DNA of 64,000 bases from Alicycliphilus denitrificans K601 (GTDB taxonomy: Bacteria; Pseudomonadota; Gammaproteobacteria; Burkholderiales; Burkholderiaceae_C), in contig NC_015422.1 of assembly GCF_000204645.1 (NCBI RefSeq), forward strand, positions 186,001 to 250,000, in the 5' to 3' direction. A model generated the notes under the pieces. That model had not been told where the DNA came from. It saw nothing but the letters and a program-made list of their open reading frames with translations, and ran no database searches. A program made the position numbers and the translations under genes. Shown here in pieces: positions 36,153 to 41,502 of this stretch; position 1 is the first letter of the stretch, and each line of letters begins with the position of its first letter.

Positions 36153-36333
36153 ATGCTTTCCGGATACCGGCTCATGTGGATGGTGGTGATGTTCGATTTG
36201 CCCGTGGTGGAAAAGTCTGAGCGGCGCGCGGCCACGGGCTTTCGCAACGCATTGCTGGACTTGGGCTTCGAGATGAGCCAGTTCAGCGTCTACATGCGGT
36301 TCTGTACCAGCCAAACACAGGTGGACACCCTGT
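36153..36333 (+). pseudogene. cas2: cas2, 5' part (interrupted by the IS21-family element)
   Basis: The first 60 codons plus one base of cas2: MLSGYRLMWMVVMFDLPVVE carries the conserved first beta strand with the metal-site aspartate (FDLP), and the frame continues RNALLDLGFEMSQFSVYMRF. After 36333 the frame enters the insertion sequence and stops at 36389 after 18 foreign residues. Joined to 41357-41502 in frame it would give a 108-residue protein, the normal Cas2 length. The break is therefore a clean insertion with no other damage. Confidence 0.93.
36328..36333 (+). repeat. Target-site duplication of the IS21-family element (left)
   Basis: CCCTGT immediately precedes the left terminal repeat and recurs at 41351-41356 directly after the right terminal repeat. 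Removing the element and one copy restores the cas2 reading frame. Confidence 0.9.
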
Positions 36334-36439
36334 TGTTGATTCATTTCCAAATCTGGGCCATTTCGGGACGCGTTCACGTTGAAATCTGAGCCACGTTGCC
36401 GCTCTATCGTGCTGAATTTTTCAGCACGGGGGAGCAGGA

Positions 36440-36673
36440 GTGATCAACGTGAGCACATTGAGCAAGTTGCGCCGCCTCGTGCTGAGGCAGGACGTGTCGG
36501 TGCGCGAGGCCAGCCGCAGGCTGGGCATCTCGCGCAATACAGCCACCAAGTGGCTCAAAGACGGGCAGATGGCCGAACCCCGATACCCGCAGCGGGTGTC
36601 AGGCCCCAGCATCCTGGAACCGTACAAGGAACAGTTGGGCCAATGGCTCAAGGCCGATAGCCATCGCAGCAAA
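36440..36673 (+). pseudogene. istA: istA, 5' part (interrupted by the IS66-family element)
   Basis: GTG start with GGAGCAGGA just upstream. The 78 codons encode the N-terminal helix-turn-helix of an IS21 transposase (LSKLRRLVLRQDVSVREASRRLGISRNTATKWLKDG) and end ...ADSHRSK. The IS66 element enters exactly after this codon. In-frame joining to 39169-40470 gives a 511-residue IstA. Confidence 0.9.
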
Positions 36674-36725
36674 GTAAGCGCACGGCAAACCCATGTTGAC
36701 CGCCGCTGGCGGCCATGGCTGATGA

Positions 36726-39168: not shown

Positions 39169-40470
39169 CGCGATCGGCGCGGGATCAAGGCGATGTTTGA
39201 AGCGCTGCGGGCGCAGGGCTACAGCGGCAGTTGGGGGCCGGTGTACGCCTTTGCCCAGCGCTGGCAGCAAGAGCAAGGCAACGCGTCACGCGGCGCGGGG
39301 TTCGTGCCGCTGAGCTTCGAGTTGGGCGAGGCATTCCAGTTCGACTGGAGCTGCGAGTACCTCTTCATCGGCGGTCTGCGCCGCCGCCTGGAGGTGGCAC
39401 ACACCAAGCTGGCGGCCAGTCGCGCCTTCTGTCTGGTGGCCTACTACAGCCAGGCGCACGAGATGCTGTTCGATGCCCACGCACGGGCGTTCGCCCTCTT
39501 CGGTGGCGTGCCCCGCCGGGGCATCTACGACAACATGAAGACCGCGGTCGACAAGGTCGGCCAGGGCAAGCAGCGCAGCGTCAATGCGCGTTTCGAGGCC
39601 ATGACCGGGCACTACCTGTTCGAGCCGGAGTTCTGTAACCGGGCCGCCGGCTGGGAGAAGGGCGTCGTCGAGAAGAACGTCCAGGACCGGCGCAAGGACA
39701 TCTGGCGTGAGGCCAGTGAGCGGCGCTGGGGATCGCTTGACGAGATCAACGACTGGCTGGAGCAAGCCTGTGTGAAGGCCTGGGGCGAGATGAGTCACCC
39801 AGAGTGGGGGCACCTCACGGTGGCCGACGTCTGGCAGGACGAACGTGCACGCCTCATGCCCAACCCCCGGGCGTTTGATGGCTATGTGGAGCAGCCGGTG
39901 CGGGTCTCTGCCACTTCGTTGATCCACTTCCAGCGCAACCGCTACAGCGTGCCATGCGAGTGGATCCACGCGGTGGTCAGTCTGCGGGCCTACGCAGATG
40001 GCCTGCTGGTGGTCGGTCCCGATGGGCGACAGGTGCGCCTGCAGCGCAGCTTCGAGCGGGACCAGACGCTCTACGACTGGATGCACTACATCGCGCTGAT
40101 CGAGCGCAAGCCCGGCGCGCTGCGCAACGGCGCGCCCTTCAAGACCATGCCCGAACCCCTGCAGGAGTTGCAGCGCCAGTTGCTGCGCCACAGCGGTGGC
40201 GACAGGGTGATGGCGCAGGTGCTCATGGGCGTGAGCCTGCATGGGCTCGAAGCCGTGCTTGTGGCGGTGGAGCTGGCACTGCAGTCGGGGCGGGTGAGTG
40301 CCGAGCACGTGCTCAACGTGCTCTCGCGCTTGCAGGAGCAGCGCATGCCTGAGCCACCGGTGGCCACCATGCTCACGCTCAACACGCCGCCACTGGCCAA
40401 CCTGCAGCGCTACGACGCGCTGCGCAACGCCCAGCCTCAAGAGGCCTCACCGGAGTCCGAGCATGCATGA
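39169..40470 (+). pseudogene. istA: istA, 3' part (transposase core)
   Basis: The remaining 433 codons of the IS21 transposase, from KRDRRG-type basic segment through the integrase core (FQFDWSCEYLFIGG; NMKTAVDKVGQG; NPRAFDGYVEQPVRVS). DDE-type acidic residues are present. An open frame continues upstream to 39073 inside IS66, so a truncated protein without the N-terminal HTH could be made, but a working IstA is unlikely. The stop overlaps the istB start. Confidence 0.9.
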
Positions 40471-41278
40471 CCTCATGGATGCCTTCAAGGCTCTGGGCTT
40501 GCACGGCATGGCCAGTGCCTGGCCGGAGGTGCTGGGCACTGCACGCATGAAGTCGCTGGATCACGAGGCCGTGCTGCACCAGCTCATCAAGGCAGAGACC
40601 GCGCAGCGCGAGGTGCGCTCCATGGCTTACCAGATGCGCGTGGCGCGCTTCCCATCGCACCGCGATCTCGCCGGCTTTGACTTCGCCCACGCGCAGCTCG
40701 ATGAGGCGCTGGTGCGCCAATTGCACACCCTTCGCTTCGTGGAGTCGGCGCACAACGTGGTGCTGGTTGGTGGCCCCGGCACAGGCAAGACCCACCTGGC
40801 CACCAGCCTGGGGATCGAGGCGATCCGCATGCATGGCAAGCGGGTGCGCTTCTTCTCCACGGTGGAACTGGTCAACGCCCTGGAGCTGGAGAAGGCGCAG
40901 AGCAAGGCCGGGCAGTTGGCACACCGGCTGATGTACGTCGATCTGGTGATCCTGGATGAACTGGGCTATCTGCCGTTCACGCAGTCGGGCGGCGCCATGC
41001 TGTTCCACCTGCTCTCCAAGCTGTACGAGCGAACGAGCGTGGTGATCACCACCAACCTCACCTTCTCAGAATGGAGCAGCGTCTTTGGCGACGCCAAAAT
41101 GACCACCGCCTTGCTCGACCGACTCACGCACCACTGCCACATCGTGGAGACAGGCAATGAGAGCTGGCGATTCAAGCATTCCAGTGCCGCTGGTGCGGCA
41201 CCGCCAAAGCAACGCAACAAAGCTCAGAAAGGAGATCGAAAAGCAGCAGACCCGATAGACTTATCCACAACCGAGTAG
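40463..41278 (+). CDS. istB: IS21-family helper ATPase IstB
   Basis: A 271-residue DnaC/DnaA-like AAA+ ATPase. Walker A is GGPGTGKTHLA and Walker B is LVILDELGYLPF; the C-terminal part includes SVVITTNLTFSEWSSVFGD and DRLTHHCHIVETGNESWRFK. IstB assists IstA in target selection. The start at 40463 overlaps the end of istA. The gene is intact although its partner is broken. Confidence 0.94.
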   Translation: MHDLMDAFKALGLHGMASAWPEVLGTARMKSLDHEAVLHQLIKAETAQREVRSMAYQMRVARFPSHRDLAGFDFAHAQLDEALVRQLHTLRFVESAHNVVLVGGPGTGKTHLATSLGIEAIRMHGKRVRFFSTVELVNALELEKAQSKAGQLAHRLMYVDLVILDELGYLPFTQSGGAMLFHLLSKLYERTSVVITTNLTFSEWSSVFGDAKMTTALLDRLTHHCHIVETGNESWRFKHSSAAGAAPPKQRNKAQKGDRKAADPIDLSTTE

Positions 41279-41350
41279 CCAGAACATCCATCAACCCAGT
41301 GGCTCAGTATTCGACGTGATCACTGGCTCAGTTGTGCTGATGAATCAACA

Positions 41351-41502
41351 CCCTGTGTCGCAACGTGGAAACGGCCTTGCCGCCAGGCGGAAAAGTCCAT
41401 ATCTTCCAATTCACAGACAAGCAGTACGAACGTGCCATCACCTTCCATGGCCAGCGTCGCCAACCAGGCCAAAAAGCACCCGATCAGTTCGATCTTTTCT
41501 GA
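41351..41502 (+). pseudogene. cas2: cas2, 3' part
   Basis: The 6-base duplication (41351-41356) is followed by the rest of cas2, read from 41357 in frame with the single base left at 36333: CRNVETALPPGGKVHIFQFT, then DKQYERAITFHGQRRQPGQK and a TGA at 41500-41502. This is the C-terminal half of Cas2 with the conserved KVHIF(Q)FTDKQ region. It has no start signal of its own. Confidence 0.92.

What the first reader, a model, noticed from the sequence alone, without database searches (positions are those of the whole stretch)
36153..41502. cas2 destroyed by a transposon nested in a transposon, with both scars readable
An IS21-family element (6-bp duplication CCCTGT) splits cas2 after codon 60, and an IS66-family element (8-bp duplication GCAGCAAA) splits its istA. 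Removing both restores a 108-codon cas2 and a 511-residue IstA. Order of events is fixed: IS21 first, IS66 second. Cas9 and Cas1 stay intact, so the locus should keep interference but has lost acquisition. Breaking istA also locks the IS21 copy in place. The 74-spacer memory is thus frozen.
Basis: seen in the sequence. Interest (0 to 1): 0.8.

Follow-up and report, generated by a model that had tools for sequence, protein, structure and literature searches.

The report
CRISPR cas2 broken by nested transposons
In this bacterium a jumping gene sits inside the CRISPR gene cas2 and a second jumping gene sits inside the first, so the cell probably still uses its stored memories of invaders but cannot add new ones by the usual route; breakage of this kind is known, and this is a very clean example.

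Summary
The genome matches the published sizes of Alicycliphilus denitrificans K601T. A type II-C locus (predicted tracrRNA, cas9, cas1, cas2, 75 repeats, 74 spacers) has cas2 split after codon 60 by a 2,522-bp IS21-family element (CCCTGT duplicated). A 2,487-bp IS66-family element splits that element's istA (GCAGCAAA duplicated). Natural uninterrupted counterparts exist for both sites: cas2 of Acidovorax sp. MR-S7, and a full IS21 copy elsewhere in the same chromosome. No other Cas2 or Cas1 was found in the genome. Of 80 related loci examined, 79 have a full-length cas2, so this loss is unusual among kin. The fragments are undecayed and both IS have identical copies elsewhere, so the loss looks recent.

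Loss of Cas1-Cas2 spacer acquisition with retained Cas9 interference is well supported, by inference. Three claims are too strong. The IS21 copy is not shown to be locked, since an identical intact copy could supply transposase. IS66 need not have arrived after IS21 entered cas2; the composite could have moved in whole. 'Frozen' holds only for Cas1-Cas2 acquisition: two spacers are tandemly duplicated, and recombination remains possible. IS-broken CRISPR loci are known; interest is modest.

The parts
31958..32062 (-). predicted tracrRNA, divergent from cas9; anti-repeat at 32015-32041; ends in a GC-rich hairpin and T-rich sequence
   Evidence: 24 of 27 bases match the repeat; folds at -32.5 kcal/mol, z -2.45; ends are inferred
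32107..35196 (+). cas9, type II, 1029 aa, intact
   Evidence: TIGR01865, 594.9 bits; two stretches align to solved Cas9 chains; 89% identical to the MR-S7 Cas9
35202..36131 (+). cas1, 309 aa, intact
   Evidence: TIGR03639, 239.2 bits; the only PF01867 match in the genome
36153..36333 (+). cas2, first piece: 60 codons; the frame runs on for 18 foreign codons to a stop at 36387-36389
   Evidence: TIGR01573; 96.7% identical to MR-S7 Cas2 residues 1-60
36328..36333 (.). IS21 target-site duplication CCCTGT, left copy
36334..41350 (+). IS21-family element with the IS66 insert inside; 2,522 bp without the insert and its extra 8-bp copy
   Evidence: inverted ends TGTTGATTCAT; 100% identical full copy in L051
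36440..36673 (+). istA, first piece
   Evidence: NF033546 profile positions 1-76
36666..36673 (.). IS66 target-site duplication GCAGCAAA, left copy
36674..39160 (-). IS66-family element, 2,487 bp
   Evidence: 8 full-length copies found in the genome including this one, plus 1 partial (40 of 232 first-look candidates were scored, so this is a minimum)
36726..38240 (-). IS66 transposase (TnpC)
   Evidence: NF033517, 470.8 bits
38323..38742 (-). IS66 TnpB (listed frame; true start probably inside)
   Evidence: NF033819, 86.3 bits
38652..39089 (-). IS66 TnpA
   Evidence: NF047595, 92.1 bits
39161..39168 (.). IS66 target-site duplication GCAGCAAA, right copy
39169..40470 (+). istA, second piece
   Evidence: NF033546 profile positions 51-293 for the listed frame 39073-40470
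40463..41278 (+). istB, helper ATPase
   Evidence: NF038214, 285.5 bits for the longer listed frame 40298-41278; start placed by eye
41351..41356 (.). IS21 target-site duplication CCCTGT, right copy
41357..41502 (+). cas2, second piece with its own stop; open throughout
   Evidence: with the duplicated codon 60, 95.9% identical to MR-S7 Cas2 residues 60-108
41538..41561 (.). 10-bp inverted repeat between the cas2 stop and the first repeat; followed by TTTT on the minus strand, so terminator-like for array transcripts
   Evidence: a restricted form was matched in 36 of 77 related loci; the closest relative L062 has an imperfect version that was not matched
41573..46489 (-). CRISPR array, 75 repeats, 74 spacers (72 distinct); crRNA sense inferred on the minus strand, newest end next to cas2, degenerate oldest repeat at 46454-46489
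   Evidence: polarity of II-C arrays from passages of PMC12080349

Best explanation
This is a recent, ordinary transposon knock-out of the adaptation gene cas2 in an otherwise intact type II-C CRISPR-Cas9 locus. An IS21-family element inserted after codon 60 of cas2 with a 6-bp duplication, and an IS66-family element inserted in the istA of that element with an 8-bp duplication (both shown from sequence). The truncated Cas2 keeps 60 of 108 residues (shown by alignment). It therefore should not form the Cas1-Cas2 integrase, and new spacers should not be added (inferred). Cas9, the predicted tracrRNA and the array with its repeat-borne promoters are untouched, and cas2 is the last gene of the operon, so interference by the 72 distinct spacers should persist (inferred).
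For: Exact duplications at both levels. Natural uninterrupted counterparts in L062 and L051. One PF09827 (Cas2) match in the genome, the first piece; none to the other Cas2 family PF09707; one Cas1. Intact cas9 and cas1; tracrRNA anti-repeat. In 79 of 80 related loci cas2 is a single frame matching profile positions 1-108. Deleting cas2 abolished acquisition in a type II-C system (Riemerella, PMC6008519, abstract read).
Against: No activity was measured. The 60-residue piece is not proven inactive. No spacer source was found: 0 matches to the array in phages (E up to 1); in plasmids one apparent related array and three weak single pieces; 0 matches in viral contigs for 22-base seeds of 4 of the 72 distinct spacers. 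So targeting cannot be shown. One sequenced genome cannot show whether the state is fixed in the strain.
Confidence: 0.86

Rival explanations
1. The IS21::IS66 composite formed elsewhere and entered cas2 as one 5-kb unit, with transposase supplied in trans by an intact IS21 copy; the end state is the same but the order of hits on cas2 differs.
For: An intact identical IS21 copy exists to supply transposase. The composite keeps both outer IS21 ends. IS66 abuts IS21 DNA at two other chromosomal places.
Against: No second copy of this same composite (IS66 at this istA position) was seen among the 8 full and 1 partial IS66 copies found (candidates were capped); a donor would have to have been lost or missed.
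Confidence: 0.1
2. Loss of acquisition was selected, for example to avoid self-targeting or to keep useful foreign DNA, rather than being a neutral hit.
For: Only the adaptation gene is broken while cas9, cas1, the predicted tracrRNA and 74 spacers stay intact.
Against: The genome holds many IS copies (at least 8 full IS66 copies; at least 9 places of a second IS21-type element at 76% identity), so a chance hit is enough. Only 1 of the 80 related loci shows a broken cas2 (L096), so there is no sign of repeated loss.
Confidence: 0.08
3. Acquisition continues through Cas1 alone or with the 78-residue Cas2 fragment.
For: Cas1 is intact, and the fragment keeps residues 1-60, which still match the Cas2 profiles.
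Against: Everything after residue 60 is lost, whereas the match of the full relative to solved Cas2 chains runs on to residue 95. cas2 deletion abolished acquisition in a II-C system.
Confidence: 0.04
4. Assembly artefact or mixed population: the nested elements were placed here wrongly because near-identical copies exist elsewhere.
For: Both elements are multi-copy and identical, which is a hard case for assembly.
Against: A misjoin would not create an exact 6-bp and an exact 8-bp duplication of sequence that is present once at the matching place in L062 and in L051. The flanking DNA is cas2 on both sides.
Confidence: 0.03

Closest known systems
Type II-C CRISPR-Cas of Burkholderiales (Acidovorax sp. 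MR-S7, L062; Bordetella pseudohinzii, L061 and PMC4624362, passages read)
   Same: Order cas9-cas1-cas2-array, 36-nt repeats, mostly 30-nt spacers, divergent tracrRNA before cas9 (reported for B. pseudohinzii); MR-S7 Cas9 89%, Cas1 95%, Cas2 pieces 96-97% identical
   Different: cas2 is uninterrupted in those loci; no spacer is shared with MR-S7 at E up to 0.01
Campylobacter coli Clade 3 Cas9-only type II-C system (PMC4607530, passages read)
   Same: Cas9 and array without a working cas1-cas2 module; [quoted passage not shown]
   Different: There cas1 and cas2 are absent; here cas1 is intact and cas2 is split by IS
CRISPR-cas loci disrupted by mobile elements in mycobacteria (PMC10333696, passages read) and Pseudomonas aeruginosa (PMC5136561, passages read)
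   Same: Transposable elements or genomic islands interrupt cas loci or arrays
   Different: Other CRISPR types and other elements; no nested IS in cas2 in the passages seen
Riemerella anatipestifer II-C cas2 deletion (PMC6008519, abstract read)
   Same: Laboratory equivalent of this natural state; acquisition lost
   Different: Engineered deletion in another organism

Membership tests
Type II-C CRISPR-Cas | Cas9 effector | tested here: met
   TIGR01865 594.9 bits
Type II-C CRISPR-Cas | cas9-cas1-cas2 without csn2 or cas4 in the operon | tested here: met
   no csn2 or cas4 family among the 10 frames scanned from cas9 to the array; cas2 present but split; rest of the genome not searched for them
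Type II-C CRISPR-Cas | tracrRNA complementary to the repeat | tested here: met
   anti-repeat 32015-32041, 24 of 27 bases; expression not testable
Type II-C CRISPR-Cas | repeat-borne promoters, and oldest repeat degenerate at the transcription-upstream end | tested here: inconclusive
   repeat ends TAGAAT on the presumed crRNA strand and the repeat at 46454 has 5 changes; promoter activity not tested
Type II-C CRISPR-Cas | working spacer acquisition | not testable with these tools
   predicted lost because cas2 is split
IS21 family | istA transposase plus istB ATPase | tested here: met
   NF033546 in two pieces, NF038214; intact copy L051
IS21 family | inverted ends and short direct target duplication | tested here: met
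   TGTTGATTCAT at both ends, 6-bp CCCTGT; the L051 copy shows no duplication
IS66 family | tnpA, tnpB, tnpC | tested here: met
   NF047595, NF033819, NF033517
IS66 family | 8-bp target duplication | tested here: met
   GCAGCAAA here; also in 4 of the 7 other full copies found, not seen in 3

The most novel reading that the evidence does not exclude
K601T is a natural interference-only type II-C strain in which losing cas2 while keeping Cas9 and 72 distinct spacers is an adaptive state, so that memory changes only by recombination and array rearrangement.
Probability: 0.08. Interest if true: 0.45.

Novelty: new member of a known kind. Interest (0 to 1): 0.27.

Why it matters
It is a clean natural cas2 mutant with everything else in place, in a cultured type strain. 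It can be used to test, without engineering, whether II-C acquisition needs Cas2 and how an array evolves once acquisition stops. It also warns that the presence of cas9, cas1 and a long array does not mean that a CRISPR locus is still learning.

Tried and rejected
Spacer sources: the whole array against phages gave no match at E up to 1, and against plasmids one record that looks like a related array and three weak single pieces. Seeds of 4 of the 72 distinct spacers (numbers 1, 2, 3/4 and 74) gave 0 matches in viral contigs; the other 68 were not scanned there. Self-targets: the matches to the own genome other than the array itself are short pieces of spacers or repeats, and no full-length self-target was seen (40 of 50 first-look candidates scored). 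Shared spacers with related loci: none full-length, best 18 bases, so array polarity could not be fixed by strain comparison and rests on the literature. Second Cas2 in another family: none. A truncated cas2 in L096 ends in unrelated DNA at a contig end; the 28-residue frame there matched no Pfam family, so I do not call it an IS. Precedent searches: cas2 + IS66 + IS21 + CRISPR found 4 papers, listing only, none opened; 'cas2 gene' + 'interrupted by' + 'insertion sequence' + CRISPR found 2, passages read, neither a nested IS in cas2; one search found nothing; of the listings I opened four papers for passages. I did not find this locus described; in the main text of the K601T genome paper, CRISPR and transpos- occur 0 times. 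I made no search for strain BC, the obvious comparison: the whole-genome collection holds one genome per species.

Full report
What it is. The window lies at 186,001-250,000 of a 4,995,263-bp contig in a two-contig genome of 5,070,751 bp. These sizes equal the published chromosome (4,995,263 bp) and genome (5,070,751 bp) of Alicycliphilus denitrificans K601T (PMC3692508, passages read). [quoted passage not shown]), cas9, cas1, a split cas2, and an array of 75 repeats and 74 spacers.

The two insertions. cas2 is interrupted after codon 60 by an IS21-family element whose outer ends are 36334 and 41350, with CCCTGT on both sides. Inside its istA lies an IS66-family element at 36674-39160 with GCAGCAAA on both sides. 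The reading does not rest on the duplications alone. In Acidovorax sp. MR-S7 (L062) the same place is uninterrupted cas2 with CCCTGT once, and the window's two pieces align to it as residues 1-60 and 60-108 at 96.7% and 95.9% identity. In 76 of 80 related loci both nucleotide pieces match; in 70 of those 76 the pieces overlap by exactly 6 bases when extended to their ends, and in the other 6 by 4, 5 or 8, probably because alignment ends were extrapolated. The IS21 pieces match one uninterrupted copy elsewhere in the chromosome (L051) at 100% with an overlap of exactly 8 bases; its IstA frame is 519 codons stop to stop, 511 from the GTG by my count.

How unusual. A search of 99 genomes (own included) gave 27 with some Cas1-type match (own included). 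Of these, 9 others are close (70-83% identical Cas1), and all 9 have a 108-residue cas2. A wider scan confirmed 107 loci and kept the best 80. In 79 of 80, cas2 is one open frame covering all 108 profile positions; the exception, L096, breaks off after position 36 near a contig end. Some of the 80 are the same genomes as the 9, so the two counts are not independent. The scan asks for conserved Cas1, so the rate of cas2 loss in loci with decayed Cas1 is not measured.

Age. The cas2 pieces show no internal stop or frameshift. Both elements have 100% identical copies elsewhere: IS66 in 8 full-length copies including this one plus a partial one (two of the full copies differ slightly), and IS21 as one other full copy and further partial ones. 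Copy counts are minima, because only 40 first-look candidates were scored. This fits a recent event; gene conversion among copies could mimic it.

What follows for function. No other Cas2 (PF09827, PF09707) or Cas1 (PF01867) was found in the genome. Deleting cas2 abolished acquisition in the type II-C system of Riemerella anatipestifer (PMC6008519, abstract). Loss of acquisition is therefore the best inference. Cas9 is full-length and has two stretches, residues 4-345 and 504-814, that align with a solved Cas9 chain; by recalled motifs these hold RuvC and HNH residues. cas2 is the last gene of the operon, and II-C repeats carry their own promoters (PMC12080349, passages). Interference should persist. 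Neither was measured. In II-C arrays new spacers enter at the last repeat in the direction of transcription. Here that would be the repeat at 41573, next to the cas2 remnant, and the degenerate repeat at 46454 would be the oldest. Between IS21 and that newest repeat 222 bp remain, 6 of them the duplication.

The IS21 copy is not shown to be locked: an intact identical copy in the chromosome could supply both proteins in trans. Even if IS21 left, cas2 would be restored only by precise removal (general knowledge). The order 'IS21 into cas2, then IS66' is the simpler one, since no other copy of this composite was seen, but entry of the composite as a unit is not excluded. The memory is not frozen in every sense: spacers 3 and 4 are identical neighbours, as are 22 and 23, which is what unequal recombination produces, though its date relative to the cas2 loss is unknown. 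Allelic exchange of spacers has been suggested for Campylobacter coli lacking cas1 and cas2 (PMC4607530, passages).

Known or new. CRISPR loci disrupted by mobile elements, degraded type II systems and II-C systems lacking the adaptation genes are in print (passages). A nested pair splitting cas2 in K601T was not found in my searches, which cover open-licence papers only and whose listings I mostly did not open. I rate it a new member of a known kind: well documented, useful as a natural mutant, not surprising.

Noticed in passing
L052 (G000:C1:4005500-4014000) and L053 (G000:C1:4130000-4134000): Two other IS66 copies abut truncated IS21 DNA (2,222 bp and 55 bp of its left side) and share an identical stretch of about 585 bp on the other side; no 8-bp duplication, as if from IS-adjacent deletions or a duplication.
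   Followed up: partly
window 41741-41836 and 42994-43089: Spacers 3 and 4 are identical neighbours, and so are spacers 22 and 23: array change without new acquisition.
   Followed up: yes
window 41538-41561: A 10-bp inverted repeat between the cas2 stop and the newest repeat recurs in relatives (restricted pattern in 36 of 77, but not in the closest, L062); possibly a terminator for array transcripts or part of the integration leader.
   Followed up: partly
L096:8944-9173: A second truncated cas2 among relatives: breaks off after about 36 residues into unrelated DNA at a contig end.
   Followed up: partly
L141 and L142 (G002:C235): A same-genus genome has cas9 in two overlapping frames (query residues 2-150 and 149-1028) beside intact cas1 and cas2: possibly the reverse case, or an assembly error.
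   Followed up: no
L101:8930-9780: About 0.8 kb of extra DNA lies between cas1 and an intact cas2.
   Followed up: no
NZ_AP027057.1:51651-53401: A Limnohabitans plasmid seems to carry an array with a related repeat (10 places matched by the array query).
   Followed up: no
window 29103-29183: SAH riboswitch directly before a long frame that looks like methionine synthase, upstream of the CRISPR locus (gene name by eye).
   Followed up: no
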